Shown piece after piece: positions 2,901 through 49,811 of a stretch of DNA of 49,811 nucleotides. The notes beneath the pieces were generated by a model. It made no database searches, was not told the DNA's origin, and saw only the letters and a list, made by a program, of their open reading frames with translations. Source of the stretch: Candidatus Poribacteria bacterium. Its GTDB lineage: Bacteria; Poribacteria; WGA-4E; B28-G17. Position 1 is the first letter of the stretch; every line of letters begins with the position of its first letter. The translations under genes were made by a program, and so were the position numbers. The stretch is from NCBI GenBank assembly GCA_021162805.1, contig JAGGXZ010000045.1:1-49811 (forward strand), written 5' to 3'.

Positions 2901-3629
2901 ATGCGCCTGATGGCGTGCGTATCGATCGGTTTGATCTCCATCATGTTTCTTCCCCTATCGGAGGGCAAGACGCTGTTCGAGACCGACTTCAGCGAGGGTT
3001 TCGATGAGTCCAAATGGGTCGTGCTGGGCAACCCTGAAATCGAGGTGGTTGAGGACAAATCCGCACCGGAATACGGTCCGAAGGTCCTGAGCATCGATAA
3101 CGGCGCCTCGATAATGGGCATCTACGTCAAGGACCTGGTCTTCGAGGATGGGATCATCGAGATATTGTGGAAGGATATGGAGGTGAACCAGAATCCCGAT
3201 AGGGACGCTGACGGACCGCTGTTCGCCAGGGCCGACATAGAGCAATCGGTTCAGAAGAAGATGTGGGTGGGATACGTGATGGAGCTGGATGCCGATTCGG
3301 GTTTCCACGTGAACGTGGGGGACGGAGCGCAGGCCCCCGTGCTCGCCATCTTGCCCGATCTCAGAAGCAAAGGGGAATGGAACTGGGTGAAATGGAGGTT
3401 GAAGGGCAACTCATTACAGCTCAAGACCTGGAACGCCGGCGAGCCTGAACCTGAGAAGTGGATGCTGGAGGCGGAGGATAAAACCTACTCCTCCGGCGAG
3501 GTCGGGATACAGGTGTGGTCCGGGAAGATCCACGTCGCCCTCTTCAGGGTGACAGATCTGGAGGGACCCTCCCCGGTCGAACCGGAAGATAAGCTGTCGA
3601 CGATATGGGCGAGCGTGAAACTCCGCTGA
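2901..3629 (+). CDS. secreted LamG/concanavalin-like protein with tryptophan C-terminal tail
   Basis: 242 residues with a clear signal peptide (about 1-22: hydrophobic core after MRLMACVSIG). The mature part resembles the beta-sandwich of 3-keto-disaccharide hydrolase (DUF1080)/LamG proteins: FETDFSEGFDESKWVV near the N-terminus, then paired W-x-W and GEVGIQVWSG strands. The protein ends EDKLSTIWASVKLR, which matches the C-terminal tail shared by four other proteins in this window. Start at 2901 is set by AAGGAGG nine bases upstream. The last 25 nt overlap the start of the next gene, so the two are probably co-translated. Substrate or ligand not known. Confidence 0.8.
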   Translation: MRLMACVSIGLISIMFLPLSEGKTLFETDFSEGFDESKWVVLGNPEIEVVEDKSAPEYGPKVLSIDNGASIMGIYVKDLVFEDGIIEILWKDMEVNQNPDRDADGPLFARADIEQSVQKKMWVGYVMELDADSGFHVNVGDGAQAPVLAILPDLRSKGEWNWVKWRLKGNSLQLKTWNAGEPEPEKWMLEAEDKTYSSGEVGIQVWSGKIHVALFRVTDLEGPSPVEPEDKLSTIWASVKLR

Positions 3630-11291: not shown

Positions 11292-11792
11292 GTGATCTTT
11301 TTAGCAACGTCGGTGTTAATCCTGGCCCTGACGGCAAGTGAGGGCGAGGTTTACATCCCTGATATGAACCTTCAACCCGATGTCAGGCAGATCTCCGTTC
11401 CCGTGAAAGTCGAAAACGTAAAAGGGGTGATGGCGATCTGGCTGGAGATAGATTTCGATCCGATGATGCTTGAAGCCACTAAGATCCTCCTCTCAGATGC
11501 GACGAAAGGGATGATAAGCTCGACCAATATAACGAACGGGACGGTTATGGTCGCGATGGCTGGGATCAACCCGATTGACCTGGACGGCGAACTCTTCAAG
11601 ATCGAGTTTAAATTGACCGACAAAATGAAGGAGGGTGTGGTGACGAAGCTGAAGATAGTAAAAGCCGATTTCAATGAGGGTGCTATCCAAGTGGAGACAA
11701 AGGACGGCCGGATATCTCTAGGTAAACCGTCGGCCGTTGTGCCTAAACATAAGAGGATAAGCATATGGGCTGAGATGAAAAAAGCAGGTTAA
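11292..11792 (+). CDS. secreted single-cohesin protein with tryptophan-type tail
   Basis: 166 residues from a GTG start preceded by GAGGTGAGGTGAAAAG. A short hydrophobic leader (about 1-17, IFLATSVLILALTAS) is followed by one cohesin-like beta-sandwich (about 20-145: V-x-VENVKGVMAIWLEIDFDP, then LFKIEFKLTD), and the chain ends KHKRISIWAEMKKAG, a divergent version of the C-terminal tail seen in four other proteins here. The next gene, 20 nt downstream, carries a dockerin, so the two products may bind each other (inference). Exported; function probably cell-surface attachment. Confidence 0.8.
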   Translation: MIFLATSVLILALTASEGEVYIPDMNLQPDVRQISVPVKVENVKGVMAIWLEIDFDPMMLEATKILLSDATKGMISSTNITNGTVMVAMAGINPIDLDGELFKIEFKLTDKMKEGVVTKLKIVKADFNEGAIQVETKDGRISLGKPSAVVPKHKRISIWAEMKKAG

Positions 11793-26476: not shown

Positions 26477-27505
26477 CTATTGTCCCCTTAGCCTCCCCCA
26501 CACCGTAAGCAGTTTATCTCTCGGTGAGATCGGATCGATCTGTATTTCGCCCTCAGGGAGCTCCGGTATAACCGAGGATTGGATCAGAACCATCTCCGAT
26601 ATCCCGCCGCAATCAGCCAAGGCAACCCCCGGGATAAGGGAGTATTTGATCCACCTCCGACCGTCGTAGACAACCCTGTAGTTCCAGCCGGCATTTCCCC
26701 TGACGGCGAAGCGACATATGTCCTCGATATCTTTATCTGTCAGCTTTCTCACGATTCCGTTCTCCCTCAGCCACTCCAGCTCCACCCTCATCGCCTCGGG
26801 AAAATCGAACTTGGTTTCATCGATATCCACGGCCTTGACGACGTCAAAGCTCGTGAACTCATCCTCATGGACCTCCAACCTCTTCAGAACGAGGGGATCA
26901 AGCCCAAGGTCATGGATCATCGCCTCGAACGCCTCCTTGATCTCCTCATATCGCCTGTCCGGGAAATATCCCCGTATGTTAAGCCTCTTCCCGTTCCTGG
27001 TCTTATAGCCGGCGATGTGAAATTTCAGATCATCCTTCATGATATCAAGGCTGATCTCATCCTCAGAGTATGATCGCACGTTGAGCTTATATCCCAGCAT
27101 CCGAAGTTTCTCCTCATCGAGCTTGAACTCGGACCATTTGAGCGGCAGATCGATATCCGTACGAACTCTCTTCCATTTCAACACCTTCATCGGTATCTGT
27201 ATCCTCACGCTGATCCCCCAGAGACCGTTTGGGGCCTTTATATCCTCCAGTATCGCAGCCATCCTCGAATCGTAGTGCGAGCGATACACGAACGCCCCTT
27301 CATATTCCTCGAAGAGGAGATATCTGTTTTTCTTAAGCCGGTTGACGTTCCTCCCTCGCTTTATCGGTTCGAGATTGAAGTAGATCCCGGGCCTGCTGAG
27401 CACCACCTCCGTGGCGAAATCGTCCTCGAACCACGAACACGGGAAACCGCTGAGGAGAGGCGCGAGCATGATGAGAATCGACAAAATAGCCTCTCTCAGC
27501 CTCAT
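26477..27505 (-). CDS. secreted protein of unknown function with tryptophan C-terminal tail
   Basis: 342 residues. Signal peptide about 1-22 (REAILSILIMLAPLLSGFPC). I do not recognise the rest: a beta-rich N-terminal half with repeated charged strands and a helical C-terminal half with DKDIEDICRFAVRGNAGWNY. A Cys at the end of the hydrophobic segment (SGFPCSW) could be a weak lipobox. The chain ends SPRDKLLTVWGRLRGQ, one of the clearest examples of the tail shared with the LamG proteins. It follows the NagB-like gene by 43 nt and may be co-transcribed with it. Confidence 0.8.
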   Translation of the reverse strand: MRLREAILSILIMLAPLLSGFPCSWFEDDFATEVVLSRPGIYFNLEPIKRGRNVNRLKKNRYLLFEEYEGAFVYRSHYDSRMAAILEDIKAPNGLWGISVRIQIPMKVLKWKRVRTDIDLPLKWSEFKLDEEKLRMLGYKLNVRSYSEDEISLDIMKDDLKFHIAGYKTRNGKRLNIRGYFPDRRYEEIKEAFEAMIHDLGLDPLVLKRLEVHEDEFTSFDVVKAVDIDETKFDFPEAMRVELEWLRENGIVRKLTDKDIEDICRFAVRGNAGWNYRVVYDGRRWIKYSLIPGVALADCGGISEMVLIQSSVIPELPEGEIQIDPISPRDKLLTVWGRLRGQ

Positions 27506-40533: not shown

Positions 40534-41334
40534 TTGATGAGAACTGTTATTTTTGTCCTCACGATGTTCTGTTTGGCGGGCTCGCTGCTTTCAGCGGGTG
40601 TCGCGAAGCTCTCAGATGACAAGGCTTTGATCCTGTATCTGCCCTTTGATGAGGGAAATGGGGACAAAACCTATGACCTGTCGAAATCCGGTCTCGTCGG
40701 AAAGCTGGTCAAGAATCCGAAATGGGTGGATGGGAAGTTCGGCAAGGCGCTGGAGTTCGATGGCAAGAGCAATTATGTGCAGATCGATGAGGATTTCAGC
40801 CCACAGGCCGAGGAGGAAGAGGGGGAGCTCTCCATCTGCGCCTGGGTGAAGGTGCTCAATGTAGCTACCGACGCGCACTCACAGACCAGACAACCCATCG
40901 TCATGAAGGGGTTCTCAGGGGAATGGGAATATGCATTATATGTCTATGACGACCTAGGCGCTGGATTTTCCCTGTGGCAGTGCGGTGGATCGGGTCATAG
41001 CGAGCCACATGGTGGGGCACTGACCAAAGATGAATGGCATTTCGTCGCCGGAACCTATAAGCTGAAGGGGGATACCAAGGTCTACATCGATGGTAAGGTT
41101 GTTATCACCGATTCGAGCCGAAGGGGCAAAGCCTGTAACGGAACCAGGCCCATAATGATCGCTCACAGGGAGGACGGCCAGTTCCTCAATGCCGTGATAG
41201 ATGAGGTGAGCATGTGGTCAAGGGAACTGAGCGAGGATGAGATCAACCAATTGATGAAAGGTCCTCTGATGGTAGCCGTTAACCCGTCAGGACTTTTGAC
41301 AACCTGTTGGGGACGGCTGAAATCGGAGAGATAG
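40534..41334 (+). CDS. secreted LamG-domain protein with tryptophan C-terminal tail
   Basis: 266 residues: signal peptide (about 1-22, ending SAGVA), one LamG/concanavalin-like jelly roll from about 30 to 240 (LILYLPFDEGNGDKTYDLS, WVDGKFGKALEFDG, DEWHFVAGTYKLKGDTKVYI, NAVIDEVSMWSRELSEDEI) and the end VNPSGLLTTCWGRLKSER. It is the intact relative of the frameshifted gene at 16515-17283, including the tail. Exported; likely binds a carbohydrate or protein at the cell surface (inference). Good ribosome site (AAAGGGGGG). Promoter and terminator-like hairpin flank it as a single-gene unit. Confidence 0.9.
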   Translation: MMRTVIFVLTMFCLAGSLLSAGVAKLSDDKALILYLPFDEGNGDKTYDLSKSGLVGKLVKNPKWVDGKFGKALEFDGKSNYVQIDEDFSPQAEEEEGELSICAWVKVLNVATDAHSQTRQPIVMKGFSGEWEYALYVYDDLGAGFSLWQCGGSGHSEPHGGALTKDEWHFVAGTYKLKGDTKVYIDGKVVITDSSRRGKACNGTRPIMIAHREDGQFLNAVIDEVSMWSRELSEDEINQLMKGPLMVAVNPSGLLTTCWGRLKSER

Positions 41335-44026: not shown

Positions 44027-45046
44027 CTAAACCTTTAACCCCGCCTCCATCTCTGAAAGGAAGGAGATGGAGTTGACGAGAATGGCGGATGTCGCCTGAT
44101 CCCCTGGGGTTCCGCCCTCAATTCTGAGATGCAAGGGCGGTATACCCTCTATTTTCACCTCGTCGCGTGGATTTTCCGCATCCAGATACATCTCCAAACG
44201 TAACCTGATGGGCTCGTTCCCCTTTTTATACCTGCCCGTTGCCCTTTGCCGTACGCCTATCACGCGGCCGGGCGGGACGTTGAAGAACTCCGTCTTAACC
44301 TCCCTTCGGGCGATGACAGGGCTGATCTCCTCCTCGATCTCGTCCACCTCGAGACCCAACCTCCAGGCAAGGTAGGCAAGCGACTCGCTCAGGCCGGCAT
44401 GTCCCCCTTCACCCCGTGATATTCTTTCTATGAACTCCCCGGCCGTCAATCCCGATCCGATCTTTGCCTGAAGGGCCCTGCGCCTCGTTGAAGCGTTGAC
44501 AACTCTGATCACCTCGATCCGACTTACCTCCTGACACACCTGAGCGAGGAAGGCGGGAAGCCTGTCCATCACAAAGCCCGGGTTCACCCCCGTTGCATAT
44601 ACGATCGTCCCGTTTCGACGACACAGCTCATCCAGCTCATCCGCCATCTCAGGTGAGTTAAGCCACGGGAAGATCAGCTCCTCACAGGAGGTTACGACGT
44701 TTATCCCGGCGAGGATAAGCTCCTTTAAGGTGGGGAAAACAGAGGGAAGCGTGGAGGCGGTCGTGAGAATCGCCACATCAGGTGTGGGATGAACCCGTCC
44801 GATCTCCTTTACCACCTCAATTCCCGTCCTTCCATCCAATTCCGCCAGATCGGAGAGATCCCTGCCGATGAGGTCAGGCGATATATCCACCAGGCCGACG
44901 AGCTCATATCCATCCTTCTTGTAGATCAAGGCCGCCGTCTCGATCCCGATCCGTCCGAGCCCTATCACGGCGACCTTTATGATCCCAGCCGCTTTGGAGC
45001 TTCTGGGTTTAAACCTGGATCTCCTTACCACCTTTAAGCCACCCAT
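44027..45046 (-). CDS. DapB/diaminopentanoate dehydrogenase-like NAD(P)-binding protein
   Basis: 339 residues. A basic N-terminal stretch is followed by a Rossmann fold (VAVIGLGRIGIETAALI) and segments DVAILTTASTLPSVF, GINVVTSCEELIFPW and VYATGVNPGFVMDRLP, which recall dihydrodipicolinate reductase and 2,4-diaminopentanoate dehydrogenase. It lacks the canonical DapB lysine motif as far as I can see, so the substrate is open. ATG 45046 follows GGAAAGAAG and overlaps the previous gene by 13 nt; ATG 45088 lacks a ribosome site. Last gene of the flotillin-like operon. Confidence 0.82.
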   Translation of the reverse strand: MGGLKVVRRSRFKPRSSKAAGIIKVAVIGLGRIGIETAALIYKKDGYELVGLVDISPDLIGRDLSDLAELDGRTGIEVVKEIGRVHPTPDVAILTTASTLPSVFPTLKELILAGINVVTSCEELIFPWLNSPEMADELDELCRRNGTIVYATGVNPGFVMDRLPAFLAQVCQEVSRIEVIRVVNASTRRRALQAKIGSGLTAGEFIERISRGEGGHAGLSESLAYLAWRLGLEVDEIEEEISPVIARREVKTEFFNVPPGRVIGVRQRATGRYKKGNEPIRLRLEMYLDAENPRDEVKIEGIPPLHLRIEGGTPGDQATSAILVNSISFLSEMEAGLKV

Positions 45047-47340
45047 CTTCTTTCCTTCTTCAGCTCCTTCTGTTTCCTGTTTAGCCATTCCACGGCGTAA
45101 TGTATCAGGTTTTCCATTATGGGCGCGTTGAGCTTGATGTTATCCGGGGTTTCATTCTTCAAGGCGGTGACGATGAACATGCCGTCGCCATATTCCAGCT
45201 TCAGGATGGCAGCGGCCTCCTGGCCGTCGAGTTTAACGGTGGCCAGCACCTCATAGTTATCGCTCCATTTGATCCACGGATCGCTGACGACGAGATGTCC
45301 GGATTTCACCTTATTCGGTTTCTGGAAGAGGTTGTCGGCCTGAGATTCGGCATCGAACTCCTGGATCTGATCTGATTTCCTCCCTACAATTGGCTCAGGG
45401 AGCCATGTCGTCCTGCATGATCGCCTCGGCCTGCTCTTTTGACCCATCGCTATAACAACGCCGCCATTAGCGACATAACTCTTGATCCTCTTCTCGATAT
45501 CGTAGTTGAACCGATATCTCTCATCCGAGATCTCAGCATAGCTTATCCAGAGGATATGGGATTTATCGAGGCGAGGCAGTTTTTTATCCTTCGTCCTCTG
45601 CAGGATGACCTTCCTGTTTCCGACGGCTTTGACCCTTTGGAGGGCGGCGAATTCCAGATCCTTCACGTTTCCGGTCAGCATCAGGACTTTCACCGGCATG
45701 CCGATGCTCCTACCTTTATATTTACCCTTACCGGCAAAGGCCAGGGGGAAGTAAAGGATCTGCGGTTTCGGTCTTCTCAGGTTGCGATCGAGACTCAATA
45801 TCTTCAACAGCGCCATCTGGGCGACTGTCGCTCCGGTACGAGGGGATTTTATCCTGCCGTTTCCGTTGCCGAGGAGCTTTCCGAGCGGCCTGAGTCTGGA
45901 ATCGGCATCCTCATATAGCCTCTCCACCTCCCATCTACGTGCGTAGGCGTGTGCGATCTCCTTGACGTCCATCCTGTTCTCCTCGAGATTGGTCACATAT
46001 CCGTGACGGATGTTGATATATTTCAGGGGATGCCCGTCCTTATCCGTGAGCAGGAAATCCTTCGGCGTCTCGCTCAATATCATCTCGGTGAGCGTGCTGA
46101 GGCTCAGCAGCTTGGGTTCATACTTCTCAGAGCGGTGTCTGATGCTGGCGTATCCGCGAGGCATCGTGATATCGGCCATACGGTGGGTTTCGAAGGAGAG
46201 CTTTATCTCCTGATATTCATGGAAAGGAATCGGAATCGCCGTTTTAACATCCTCAAAGGGCGAAACAACCACACCTGCAACCGGCCTGAGCGTGATCTCG
46301 AACTTGCCGAAGGGCTCGATGAACTTGTATATCTTCCATTCAACATTGGGCCTTCTGCCACGAAACCCCAGCTTCTGAAGCTGAACTCGGAATGGACCGC
46401 GGTTATATATGATCAGCTTATCTCCTTGTCTTTCGAACTTTAAGCCGTGAGGATCTATGTAAGCGGTTCCTTTCTTACGATCTCTCTCCCAGACTTGAAA
46501 CTCCCAGTAATCCCTGTAATTGACCTCCATCAGCTCGATCCACTCGTTGGTGTAGTCCGCAAGCACTCCTTCATATTCCTGCTTACCGGCTGCTACGACG
46601 ACCTTTGTGCCGACAAGGCGGTCTATCAGCCGGTCATATACCGTTTCAACCGTATACTCCAACGCCTCACGGGAGGTCTCCTCGATGAATTTCTGAGCTT
46701 CAACCGCTTTAAAACGGCTTTTAACTTGTCCGATTATCTTCGTGAGAATCTGATTGAGTGCGTTTTTGAGGGTATTAAAGGCAACCTTAATTTTTCTGCG
46801 AAGCCTGACGGCGAGTCTGGGATGATAGACCTTCTCGAGCTCATTATCCCTCTCCTGCCTCTCATGCTCCAACATCACGTCATGATATCTGACGAAGGCG
46901 TGAACCTGATCCTTCCACTTACCTGAGAGGAGAAAACTTGCCTCTTTGCCCTCAACCCTGAGCTTCTCGGAGACGATCTCGATACCTGTGGTCTCAAGTC
47001 TGAATATGCCGTCATAGAATTGCTCATTCCTCAGTTGAAGCCTGACGAATTTGCCGCGGAGCTTCTTGAGGCACTTATCCTTGCGGATCAAGCTGAAAAT
47101 AGTGGTGACGATCGTGGTAAGTACCACGAAGATAGCTCCCGAAAGCAGTGTGTGATCGTTTATAAAATCGAGGAGTTTCCTCCAGATGGTTTTATCCTGT
47201 GCCGTTTCGGATACCGCCGCCGCTAAGGCCAGGGTCGGCAGAACCACACCTATCAGATAGGAAATGACCCTGAGGAATTTCACCTTGATCTTCAACTCCA
47301 ACTCACCTGCCTCTTTCAATCTTCGAACTGTCCGCCGCAT
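45034..47340 (-). CDS. two-TM protein with two Sm-like segments and GATase-like C-terminus
   Basis: Up to 768 residues, family not recognised. Two TM helices (about 24-44 and 66-86), then a small beta-barrel-like stretch GKFVRLQLRNEQFYDGIFRL (about 91-120), a basic helical linker, a second one GTKVVVAAGKQEYEGVLADY (about 242-275), beta-rich segments to about 400, and a C-terminal alpha/beta region (about 527-755: VKVLMLTGNVKD, HILWISYAEIS, YVANGGVVIAMGQ, YGDGMFIVTAL) like class-I GATase/ThuA folds without an obvious nucleophilic Cys. Two Sm/LSm-type barrels in one membrane protein are unusual. TTG 47301, behind GAGGCAGGTGAG, may be the true start and would remove the 25-nt overlap with the cysteine-rich gene. 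Confidence 0.8.
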   Translation of the reverse strand: MRRTVRRLKEAGELELKIKVKFLRVISYLIGVVLPTLALAAAVSETAQDKTIWRKLLDFINDHTLLSGAIFVVLTTIVTTIFSLIRKDKCLKKLRGKFVRLQLRNEQFYDGIFRLETTGIEIVSEKLRVEGKEASFLLSGKWKDQVHAFVRYHDVMLEHERQERDNELEKVYHPRLAVRLRRKIKVAFNTLKNALNQILTKIIGQVKSRFKAVEAQKFIEETSREALEYTVETVYDRLIDRLVGTKVVVAAGKQEYEGVLADYTNEWIELMEVNYRDYWEFQVWERDRKKGTAYIDPHGLKFERQGDKLIIYNRGPFRVQLQKLGFRGRRPNVEWKIYKFIEPFGKFEITLRPVAGVVVSPFEDVKTAIPIPFHEYQEIKLSFETHRMADITMPRGYASIRHRSEKYEPKLLSLSTLTEMILSETPKDFLLTDKDGHPLKYINIRHGYVTNLEENRMDVKEIAHAYARRWEVERLYEDADSRLRPLGKLLGNGNGRIKSPRTGATVAQMALLKILSLDRNLRRPKPQILYFPLAFAGKGKYKGRSIGMPVKVLMLTGNVKDLEFAALQRVKAVGNRKVILQRTKDKKLPRLDKSHILWISYAEISDERYRFNYDIEKRIKSYVANGGVVIAMGQKSRPRRSCRTTWLPEPIVGRKSDQIQEFDAESQADNLFQKPNKVKSGHLVVSDPWIKWSDNYEVLATVKLDGQEAAAILKLEYGDGMFIVTALKNETPDNIKLNAPIMENLIHYAVEWLNRKQKELKKERRWVA

Positions 47341-48059
47341 TTGCGACAGAGAATATAAAACTGGATGTCATCCTGCTGGGCGTATTGCTTCATCAGTTCC
47401 ACCACCTCATCCGGCAGATCTCCTCCGCATTTAGCGCATTTGTAAAGCGAACCTTTAGGCGGTGGAACCTTCGATAGATCGCCCAGCATCTTCCCCCATA
47501 TCCTAAACTCCTCCGGTATGGGCGTTCCAACCTGTTTGGCTATCTCAAGCCCCCATCTGATCAGCCTTTGGAACTCCTCGAAGCTTATCTCCTTGAACGG
47601 CACCTCACCTCTACGCTCGACCTGTTCCTTGAGCTCCTCCTCCGTCAGATCGGCGTCCACGAAGCAATCCCTTATCCCCCTCTTCCAGAGATCAAGCAGG
47701 ATAAACATGGCCTGCAGATTACCGTCCGGCTTTTTACGGGCTATCACAGCCGAGACCATTCCCTGAAGCATAGAATCGGTTGCCAGACAGGTATAGACCG
47801 GGAATTTCTCCTCCGGTAATGCTCTGCTGCGTCGGATCAGCGGTGCATAGTAATAACAGCTCTCATTGCATCCTTTGATGTTACCTCGAAGCCTGCGGCA
47901 GCAGGATGGACAGATAACGACCTTCAGCGCCTGACAGTAACGCTTTCCCTGATTTACGCGACAGACACGGCATTTGGTTCTGACACGGCGCCTTTTCTTC
48001 TTAAACATCGAGACGAACAGCTCATCTCGGGTTGTCGGTCGAATCTCCTCCGATCTCAA
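47316..48059 (-). CDS. cysteine-rich zinc-binding protein of unknown function
   Basis: Up to 247 residues. The N-terminal knuckle-rich part has the series CRVC, C-x-x-x-x-x-x-x-ICPSCC, GC, SC and then YYYAP (about 33-75), the C-terminus a four-cysteine zinc ribbon (CAKCGG ... CRKCGG, about 212-245). The middle is helical (LQAMFILLDLWKRGIRDCF). No catalytic motif seen. Start uncertain: TTG 48059 or ATG 48008; neither has an ideal ribosome site. Lies 5 nt after the flotillin-like gene and overlaps the Sm-like gene, so it is the middle gene of that operon. Confidence 0.78.
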   Translation of the reverse strand: MRSEEIRPTTRDELFVSMFKKKRRRVRTKCRVCRVNQGKRYCQALKVVICPSCCRRLRGNIKGCNESCYYYAPLIRRSRALPEEKFPVYTCLATDSMLQGMVSAVIARKKPDGNLQAMFILLDLWKRGIRDCFVDADLTEEELKEQVERRGEVPFKEISFEEFQRLIRWGLEIAKQVGTPIPEEFRIWGKMLGDLSKVPPPKGSLYKCAKCGGDLPDEVVELMKQYAQQDDIQFYILCRKCGGQFED

Positions 48060-48064
48060 TCGGA

Positions 48065-49811
48065 TCAGCCTCCCGCCGGCCCGCCGGTCTGAACCCTAAG
48101 CAGATCGGCCAGGTATTGTGCAATTTTATCCGCTATCTTTTCGGCGTCAACCTCAGCGAAGCTGAACAGCTCTTTAAGAATGGGCATAAGGGCGCTGGTA
48201 TCAAGCAGGCTTGCCGCGACGCGCCCCATCGTGCTCTTGTCTATCCCTTTACCTCCGCTTACGCCCATATCCAGTATCTTGATCTCACCGATCCTCTCAA
48301 CCGGCTTCATCAGCCGCTCAAACAGTTGAGGTGAGGTCTCGATCAATGAGAGCAATGCCTCCTGAACAAGCACCCTCTGTTCGGCGACGTTTCTGGCCTC
48401 CAAGTGGGCCATCTCACCTTGTGCCTTCGCCTTCGCCTCGGCCAGAATTGCCTCGGCGATACGTTCGATAGGTTTAGCCTGGGCCTCAGCGTTGATCAAT
48501 GCCACCTCACGCTGCCACTCAGCCTCTTTAACGCGTTGAGTAGCTGTGACGTTGACCTCGGCTCCCACCTTCTGCGCGACGGCCTCCAACTGATCCTTCT
48601 CGGCGAGCTCCGTGATCTTGTGCTTGTTGAACACCTGGATCTTCCTGTCCTCATCCAACAACGTCACAACCAATTCCTGATTGATCCTCGATTTCTCAAC
48701 GGCCAGTGTCTTCTCGATCTCGGCCAGTTGGACCTGCCTATCACGTGAGATCTGAGCCAGCTCGACGGCCAAATCCTTCTGGATCTCCCTCTCCCACACC
48801 GCCTGTTCCATGTTTACCTTGGAGAGCTCAACGTTCAACATCCTCTCGATCTCCCTCAATTGAACCGTCTGCTCCTGGGCGATACGCGCCGTCTCAACCT
48901 TCAAGGTCTTATCTATCTCAGCCAATTGAACCTGTCTGGTCTGATCGATCTGGGAGGTCTCCACAACTAGGTTCTTCTCAATGTCCCTCAATTGCACGGT
49001 CTGTTCCTGGTTGATCCTGGCAGTTTCCACGTTCAGAGTTCTCTCGATATCCCTCTCCATGACCTGTTGTTCCTGGGCGATGCGGGCCTTCTCAACGTGC
49101 AGCGTCTTTTCTATCTCTCTCTCCAATACCGCCTGCTCCTGCGCTATCCTTGCTAACTCCACCTTCAAGGTCTTATCTATCTCAGCCAATTGAACCTGTC
49201 TGGTCTGATCGATCTGGGAGGTTTCAACCACCAGGTTCTTCTCGATGTCTCTGAGCGTGACCGCTTGCTCCTGGTTGATCCTGGCAGTTTCCACGTTCAG
49301 AGTTCTCTCGATATCCCTCTCCATGACCTGTTGTTCCTGGGCGATGCGAGCCTTCTCTACGTGCAGCGTCTTCTCTATCTCCCTCTCCAGCACAGCCTGC
49401 TCCTGCGCTATCCTTGCTAATTCCACCTTCAAGGTCTTATCTATCTCAGCCAATTGAACCTGTCTGGTCTGATCGATCTGAGAGGTTTCAACCACCAGGT
49501 TCTTCTCAATGTCTCTGAGAGTAACGGCTTGCTCCTGATTGATCCTGGCCGTCTCCACGTTCAGTGTTCTCTCAATGTCCCTCTCCATGACCTGTTGCTC
49601 CTGCGCTATGCGGGCCTTCTCAACGTGCAGCGTCTTCTCTATCTCCCTCTCCAGCACAGCCTGCTCCTGCGCTATCCTTGCTAACTCCACCTTCAAGGTC
49701 TTATCTATCTCAGCCAATTGAACCTGTCTGGTCTGATCGATCTGGGAGGTTTCAACCACCAGGTTCTTCTCAATGTCTCTGAGCGTGACCGCTTGCTCCT
49801 GGTTGATCCTG
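48065..49811 (-). CDS. flotillin-like protein with 22-residue repeat coiled coil, N-terminus outside window
   Basis: At least 582 residues; the frame is open to the window edge. Visible part: 17 complete 22-residue units of the type VE-x-ARI-x-QEQ-x-V-x-x-x-xIEKTL (48635-49811) plus a partial one, then about 190 residues beginning VFNKHKITELAEKDQL, with VKEAEWQREVALINAEAQAKPI and EAILAEAKAKAQGEMAHLEA, an Ala/Glu-rich helix like the tail of flotillins/SPFH proteins, and a short C-terminal domain. The unit is two 11-residue hendecads, which favours a long straight helical rod. A membrane-bound SPFH head beyond the edge is expected but not seen. First visible gene of an operon with the cysteine-rich and Sm-like proteins. 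Confidence 0.82.
   Translation of the reverse strand, partial: RINQEQAVTLRDIEKNLVVETSQIDQTRQVQLAEIDKTLKVELARIAQEQAVLEREIEKTLHVEKARIAQEQQVMERDIERTLNVETARINQEQAVTLRDIEKNLVVETSQIDQTRQVQLAEIDKTLKVELARIAQEQAVLEREIEKTLHVEKARIAQEQQVMERDIERTLNVETARINQEQAVTLRDIEKNLVVETSQIDQTRQVQLAEIDKTLKVELARIAQEQAVLEREIEKTLHVEKARIAQEQQVMERDIERTLNVETARINQEQTVQLRDIEKNLVVETSQIDQTRQVQLAEIDKTLKVETARIAQEQTVQLREIERMLNVELSKVNMEQAVWEREIQKDLAVELAQISRDRQVQLAEIEKTLAVEKSRINQELVVTLLDEDRKIQVFNKHKITELAEKDQLEAVAQKVGAEVNVTATQRVKEAEWQREVALINAEAQAKPIERIAEAILAEAKAKAQGEMAHLEARNVAEQRVLVQEALLSLIETSPQLFERLMKPVERIGEIKILDMGVSGGKGIDKSTMGRVAASLLDTSALMPILKELFSFAEVDAEKIADKIAQYLADLLRVQTGGPAGG
48635..49811 (-). repeat. 66-bp tandem repeats arranged in a 264-bp higher-order period
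   Basis: Units of 66 bp (22 codons) form sets of four distinct types; the set of four (264 bp, 88 codons) recurs almost base for base, for example the GGTTTCAACCACCAGG block at about 49221, 49485 and 49749. Toward the C-terminal side the units diverge. The repeats run into the right edge. Confidence 0.9.

What the first reader, a model, noticed from the sequence alone, without database searches (positions are those of the whole stretch)
44027..49811. Unrecognised operon: repeat-rod flotillin-like protein, cysteine-rich protein, two-Sm-barrel membrane protein
Four adjacent minus-strand genes with overlaps or gaps of 5 nt or less. The first makes a flotillin-like protein with a huge hendecad rod, the second a protein with a multi-cysteine N-terminal cluster and a C-terminal zinc ribbon, the third a two-TM protein with two Sm-like stretches and a GATase-like end, the fourth a DapB-like dehydrogenase. 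Flotillin genes usually pair with NfeD; I know of no system with this set. It may be a membrane-microdomain assembly with an RNA- or ligand-binding cytoplasmic part (inference).
Basis: partly seen in the sequence, partly recalled or inferred. Interest (0 to 1): 0.72.

Follow-up and report, generated by a model that had tools for sequence, protein, structure and literature searches.

The report
Poribacterial flotillin operon with crystallin genes
The window ends inside a gene cluster, conserved across the bacterial phylum Poribacteria and found in no paper we searched, in which a flotillin (a membrane scaffold protein) with an unusually long, repeat-built rod is encoded next to two beta/gamma-crystallin proteins, a zinc-cysteine protein and, in some families, a membrane-anchored protein; its function is unknown but it probably builds a membrane-attached scaffold.

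Summary
The window is a whole contig (C45) of a Poribacteria MAG; it breaks inside a 264-bp repeat of the flotillin rod. The other side is contig C58 of the same genome, whose end encodes the flotillin start, preceded by two beta/gamma-crystallin genes. The order is crystallin-DUF1349, crystallin-GATase-like, flotillin, Cys protein, 768-aa membrane protein. All five lie on one contig in another family (G007).

In 85 Poribacteria, crystallin-flotillin are neighbours in 64 of 70 genomes that have both, and flotillin-Cys in 66 of 71. The 768-aa gene joins only in families f1, f3 and f4, but is absent from the two lineages that also lack the crystallin and Cys genes. The DapB-like dehydrogenase is not conserved here.

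The rod is a true hendecad array of 88-aa units, 3.5 or more to 7.6 copies. The SPFH head is confirmed in orthologues. Sm-like barrels are suggested but not proven; AlphaFold models were useless (pLDDT 40).

Best reading (inferred): a Poribacteria-specific, non-NfeD flotillin scaffold with calcium-binding crystallin and zinc partners. New variant of a known kind; no paper found describes it.

The parts
48065..49810 (-). Flotillin, 3' part: rod and C-terminal flotillin domain; head lost in the assembly gap at the contig end
   Evidence: window is the whole of contig C45; head of the family-mate G001 reads Band_7 4.4e-21
48893..49811 (-). 264-bp (88-aa, 8 hendecads) tandem repeat array of the rod, at least 3.5 copies
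   Evidence: hendecad phase; same unit length with 7.6, 7.3 and 6.4 copies in G003, G007, G011
48164..48490 (-). Flotillin C-terminal domain PF15975
47316..48059 (-). Cys protein (247 aa): N-terminal zinc-binding cluster, central domain, C-terminal zinc ribbon; no signal peptide seen
47856..47972 (-). Cys protein N-terminal cluster, C30-C68; probably two interleaved zinc sites
   Evidence: C42, C54, C64, C68 invariant; C30, C33, C50, C53 lost together in the f3 sequences (inference: cross-brace)
47337..47438 (-). Cys protein C-terminal zinc ribbon C208/C211/C238/C241
   Evidence: invariant in 18 homologues
45034..47340 (-). 768-aa membrane-anchored protein: TM, two possible Sm-like barrels, middle beta region, transposase-like helix motif, GATase-like end
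46876..47103 (-). possible Sm-like barrel 1 of the 768-aa protein
   Evidence: sub-threshold LSM 0.0015 (4 of 15 homologues), SM-ATX, RimP SH3; not proven
46324..46653 (-). region with possible Sm-like barrel 2
   Evidence: sub-threshold SM-ATX 0.019 and RimP SH3; with barrel 1 forms a stand-alone protein in two non-Poribacteria
45070..45699 (-). GATase/ThuA-like C-terminal domain, shared with the crystallin protein on contig C58
   Evidence: no invariant Cys; no Pfam or PDB family above threshold
44027..45088 (-). 2,4-diaminopentanoate-dehydrogenase-like protein: adjacent, but NOT part of the conserved cluster
   Evidence: NF040740 220 bits against a cut-off of 400; absent near the cluster in relatives

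Best explanation
This is the 3' half of a Poribacteria-specific flotillin operon. Shown: the cluster reads crystallin-DUF1349, crystallin-GATase-like, long-rod flotillin, Cys/zinc protein, then (in families f1, f3, f4) the 768-aa TM protein. Inferred mechanism: the flotillin is anchored by its N-terminal hydrophobic segments and SPFH domain and oligomerises, as flotillins do, into a membrane-attached ring or cage whose wall is the hendecad rod. Each 88-aa repeat adds about 13 nm of helix, so repeat number sets wall length. The soluble crystallin proteins (one with a conserved calcium motif) and the zinc protein are its dedicated partners or contents. The 768-aa protein is an integral-membrane partner that shares the GATase-like domain with one crystallin protein and may therefore meet the same binding partner. 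The whole would organise membrane or protein-quality processes, as bacterial flotillins do elsewhere; which process is not known.
For: Gene order intact on one contig in G007 (L044: 17242-18828, 15810-17198, 12143-15769, 11405-12130, 9013-11478, all minus). Own genome: contig C58 ends 19 codons into the flotillin (MRLIIAILMVPIVIISTIL), 17 of 19 identical to the head of G001, which carries Band_7 at 4.4e-21. Adjacency 64/70 and 66/71. Seven f6 and two f7 genomes lack the crystallin-GATase, Cys and full-length 768 genes together (co-absence, not corrected for kinship). Flotillin C-terminal domain; hendecads; 264-bp unit kept across families with differing copy number. Canonical [ND][ND]xxSS motif at residue 144 of 6/6 crystallin-GATase proteins examined. 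Shared GATase-like domain. Published flotillin cage: 44 subunits, 22 nm high, 186-aa wall helix (PMC11260169).
Against: No physical interaction or localisation data. The 768-aa gene is unlinked in most Poribacteria. Downstream genes change by family (nuo operon in f6/f8, a peptidase in most f2 loci examined, 768 in f1/f3/f4), so co-transcription alone may explain some links. No confident structure for any part. Cage formation is by analogy only. Co-absence rests on perhaps two loss events.
Confidence: 0.5

Rival explanations
1. An ordinary flotillin that stabilises membranes under stress, with neighbours that are only co-transcribed housekeeping or hypothetical genes; the long rod is a neutral repeat expansion.
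For: Repeat number varies widely and copies are near-identical at DNA level; downstream genes differ by family.
Against: The crystallin-flotillin-Cys order is kept across several families and, as contig halves, in another class; partners are absent together. Families f2/f6 also hold a second flotillin, which in G042 is the canonical kind with YqiJ/NfeD-like and PspA genes, so the housekeeping role may already be taken there.
Confidence: 0.2
2. A cytoplasmic-face sensing platform: crystallin calcium sites, DUF1349 and the swapped lectin-like inserts of the Cys protein bind calcium or glycans, and the flotillin clusters them at the membrane to signal envelope damage.
For: Same insertion site in the Cys protein holds LamG (6.4e-24), F5/8 type C (3.6e-08) or an unnamed conserved domain in different families; DUF1349/GH43_C2 on crystallin 1; calcium motif.
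Against: Inserts are absent in f1, f3, f4, f9 and f10; none of these proteins has a visible signal peptide, so glycan access is unclear.
Confidence: 0.15
3. A respiratory microdomain: the scaffold holds complex I or other membrane enzymes.
For: In five f6/f8 loci the nuo operon starts 61-464 bp after the Cys gene on the same strand.
Against: Not so in f1, f2, f3, f4, f9 or f10 loci examined.
Confidence: 0.08
4. An RNA-related assembly: Sm-like barrels of the 768-aa protein bind RNA at the membrane.
For: Sm/SH3-type small barrels are the recurring class among the weak matches.
Against: All below cut-off; many small barrels do not bind RNA; no RNA enzymes recognised in the cluster.
Confidence: 0.07

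Closest known systems
Flotillin (FloT/YuaG, eukaryotic Flot1/2; SPFH superfamily)
   Same: SPFH domain in orthologues, long helical rod, PF15975 C-terminal domain
   Different: Hendecad rod of 88-aa tandem units, about 230-830 residues in five complete orthologues against 186 in human flotillin; no NfeD neighbour; crystallin and Cys partners
floT-NfeD/YqiJ with PspA (second flotillin locus of Poribacteria, G042 L146)
   Same: Flotillin with SPFH and Flot domains in an operon
   Different: Partners are YqiJ_N/NfeD-like and PspA, not crystallins and Cys protein
pspA-ydjGHI of Bacillus subtilis
   Same: SPFH protein in an operon with dedicated partner proteins, two of them membrane proteins (PMC8581546)
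   Different: No PspA recognised next to this flotillin; no crystallins there
Microbial beta/gamma-crystallins (PF00030)
   Same: Two crystallin stretches detected in most members, one canonical calcium motif in the crystallin-GATase protein
   Different: Fused to DUF1349 or a GATase-like domain and encoded beside flotillin
Major vault protein cages
   Same: Analogy only: SPFH-related shoulder and coiled-coil caps in a large cage (own knowledge)
   Different: No sequence test made; membrane anchoring expected here

Membership tests
Flotillin | C-terminal flotillin domain PF15975 above cut-off | tested here: met
   58.4 bits, cut-off 27
Flotillin | SPFH/Band_7 head in the window's own gene | tested here: inconclusive
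   Lies in the gap between contigs C58 and C45; only the first 19 codons seen; no match to the L097 flotillin head in the genome
Flotillin | SPFH/Band_7 head in orthologues of the same cluster | tested here: met
   G001 4.4e-21, G083 1e-13, G007 2.4e-16, G006 7.9e-08
Flotillin | helical coiled-coil-type rod between head and tail | tested here: met
   hendecad phase in six rods
Flotillin | oligomeric, membrane microdomain location | not testable with these tools
   needs experiment
Flotillin-NfeD operon | NfeD-type gene next to the flotillin | tested here: not met
   neighbours are crystallins and Cys protein; an NfeD-like YqiJ_N gene accompanies the second paralogue instead
Beta/gamma-crystallin | PF00030 above cut-off | tested here: met
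   58.8 and 58.2 bits, cut-off 25
Beta/gamma-crystallin | calcium motif [ND][ND]xxSS | tested here: met
   residue 144 in 6/6 crystallin-GATase proteins; the canonical motif was found in only one of the crystallin-DUF1349 proteins examined
Sm/LSM (768-aa protein) | LSM domain above cut-off | tested here: not met
   best E 0.0015 on the isolated segment; on whole proteins best E 0.02 and, where bits are printed, below cut-off
Sm/LSM (768-aa protein) | five-strand small barrel fold | tested here: inconclusive
   AlphaFold model pLDDT 39.8 from two sequences
Class I glutamine amidotransferase (768-aa C-terminus) | conserved nucleophile Cys | tested here: not met
   no invariant Cys in 13 homologues
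2,4-diaminopentanoate dehydrogenase (44027-45088) | NF040740 equivalog cut-off 400 bits | tested here: not met
   220.3 bits; DAP_DH_C domain itself met, 92.9 bits
Known or candidate phage defence | PADLOC model match | tested here: not met
   none for seven proteins

The most novel reading that the evidence does not exclude
Poribacteria build giant, length-adjustable flotillin cages: 88-aa hendecad modules extend the wall to several times that of known flotillin cages, and crystallin and zinc proteins cap or fill them, making a membrane-based protein compartment, vault-like in principle, in a phylum long suspected of having cell compartments.
Probability: 0.15. Interest if true: 0.85.

Novelty: new variant of a known kind. 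Interest (0 to 1): 0.6.

Why it matters
It defines a phylum-level flotillin system with partners found beside flotillin in no paper we searched, and gives four concrete protein families to co-express. Because rod length varies by an exact 88-aa module between relatives, it makes a clean test of how flotillin wall length relates to cage size and function. Poribacteria have been suspected of compartments; the two papers read name microcompartments and gas-vesicle proteins but contain no mention of flotillin or crystallin (PMC3909097, PMC5087111).

Tried and rejected
Band_7 search of the own genome found only a stomatin-type protein (C187) and a weak FloA-type pair (C160), not this head. PDB profile searches with the 768-aa family, Cys family, GATase-like domain, both barrels and the insert gave nothing significant. 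AlphaFold with two sequences gave pLDDT 40 for both targets, so no fold search was run. A plain Fourier test of hydrophobicity did not exceed shuffles; the phase test modulo 11 did stand out. Defence-system models: none. Considered and rejected: dehydrogenase as a member; Cys protein as Poribacteria-only invention in every part (its N-terminal and central domains occur separately in other phyla).

Full report
What is in the window. The window equals contig C45 (49,811 bases) of genome G000. The nearest named relative is 'Candidatus Poribacteria bacterium B28_G17'. The flotillin ORF runs off the contig end inside a 264-bp tandem repeat, which is probably why assembly stopped there; the rod sequence matches nowhere else in the assembly.

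What lies beyond the window. A relative's crystallin gene, found upstream of its flotillin, hits contig C58 of G000. C58 carries, on its minus strand, crystallin-DUF1349 (1506-2969) and crystallin-GATase-like (74-1492); its first 57 bases encode MRLIIAILMVPIVIISTIL. In the family-mate G001 the same order continues into a 468-aa flotillin head (MRLIIAILMVPVVVISTIL...) with Band_7 at 4.4e-21, and that contig breaks in the rod as well. I therefore join C58 and C45 through the flotillin; the join itself is an inference, the gap is unsequenced.

Conservation. G007 holds all five genes on one contig. In 85 Poribacteria the crystallin-GATase gene lies directly upstream of flotillin in 64 of 70 genomes with both, and flotillin is within 1.5 kb upstream of the Cys gene in 66 of 71. 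The Cys-768 link is seen in six genomes of f1, f3 and f4. In f9 (another class), crystallin 1 - crystallin 2 - flotillin and flotillin - Cys are seen on separate contigs. Among 387 genomes the crystallin-GATase protein matches only Poribacteria. The full Cys protein is Poribacteria-only; partial matches elsewhere cover the N-terminal cluster or the central domain. The 768-aa protein is found nearly throughout Poribacteria; only its N-terminal TM + two-barrel unit occurs in two other genomes, without flotillin in the stretch read. Seven f6 and two f7 genomes lack crystallin-GATase, Cys and full 768 genes together; this co-absence is not independent of kinship and may be two events.

The proteins. 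Flotillin: PF15975 at 9.6e-16, hendecad phase, 88-aa units at 3.5 or more (window), 6.4 (G011), 7.3 (G007) and 7.6 (G003) copies. Crystallins: PF00030 above cut-off, plus DUF1349 in the first; one canonical calcium motif kept in the second. Cys protein: cysteines 42, 54, 64, 68 are invariant, while 30, 33, 50, 53 are lost together in f3, suggesting two interleaved zinc sites (inference). In f2, f6 and f8 a domain is inserted after residue about 152: LamG in G065, F5/8 type C in G071, an unnamed conserved 174-aa domain in most. 768-aa protein: recurrent sub-threshold Sm-type matches, a transposase-like helix motif in 17 of 21, and a GATase-like end without invariant Cys that is homologous to the crystallin-GATase protein. 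Dehydrogenase: DAP_DH_C domain, not near the cluster in relatives.

Mechanism. Flotillins form a membrane-attached cage of 44 subunits with a 186-aa wall helix, 22 nm high (PMC11260169). A rod of about 830 residues (G003) would, by simple scaling, make a much taller wall. That the poribacterial protein assembles in this way, and that crystallins and Cys protein sit in or on it, is inference. Operon partners of SPFH proteins elsewhere do form complexes with them (YdjG/H/I with PspA, PMC8581546; FloA with NfeD, as cited in PMC13086221), which makes partnership the default reading.

Novelty. No paper found links flotillin with crystallin in bacteria or mentions either in Poribacteria; the library is open-access only. 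I file it as a new variant of a known kind: membership in flotillin is met, the NfeD operon type is not met.

Noticed in passing
window 2901-3629 (+), 11292-11792 (+), 26477-27505 (-), 40534-41334 (+); also L045, L053, L055, L101, L102, L116, L123, L157: A shared C-terminal tail, roughly K-L-[ST]-T-x-W-[GAS]-x-[LIV]-K, ends 16 of 557 poribacterial ORFs (0 in internal control windows; the regular expression tested was the core W[GAS]x[LIVM][KR]); 13 of 16 have a hydrophobic N-terminus. It looks like an undescribed sorting tag.
   Followed up: partly
L109 9504-10166 (-), L108 9444-9935 (-), L097 9481-10014 (-): One insertion site in the Cys protein holds three different domains in different families: LamG, F5/8 type C, and an unnamed conserved domain.
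   Followed up: yes
L137, L138, L139, L140, L141, L143, L145: The motif C-x2-C...KRxCPAL...IC-x2-CC...C-x3-C-x-Y occurs at or near the N-terminus of unrelated small proteins in other phyla and got no Pfam name in the Cys family scan; probably a zinc domain without a model.
   Followed up: partly
L114 5346-6020 (+) (G000:C103): A paralogue of the Cys protein's central domain lies among what look by eye like type I CRISPR-Cas genes (cas6, cas8, cas7, cas5, cas3) in the same genome.
   Followed up: no
window 45907-46071 (-) (residues 424-478 of the 768-aa protein): Conserved GYVTN...Y-x2-RW-x2-E matches the end of DDE_Tnp_1 in 17 of 21 homologues (best 2.1e-06); domesticated transposase piece or convergence, unexplained.
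   Followed up: partly
L097, L098, L108, L109, L110 downstream of the Cys gene: In f6 and f8 the nuo (complex I) operon follows the cluster on the same strand; in most f2 loci examined an M6-type peptidase-like gene does.
   Followed up: partly
L146 7110-12525 (-) (G042): A second, canonical poribacterial flotillin sits between PspA and YqiJ/NfeD-like genes, with a second PspA-like ORF.
   Followed up: yes
L123 5429-6937 (-) and L157 874-2409 (+): Secreted-looking proteins with the C-terminal W tag stand near the crystallin genes in two distant families, as they do widely in these genomes.
   Followed up: no
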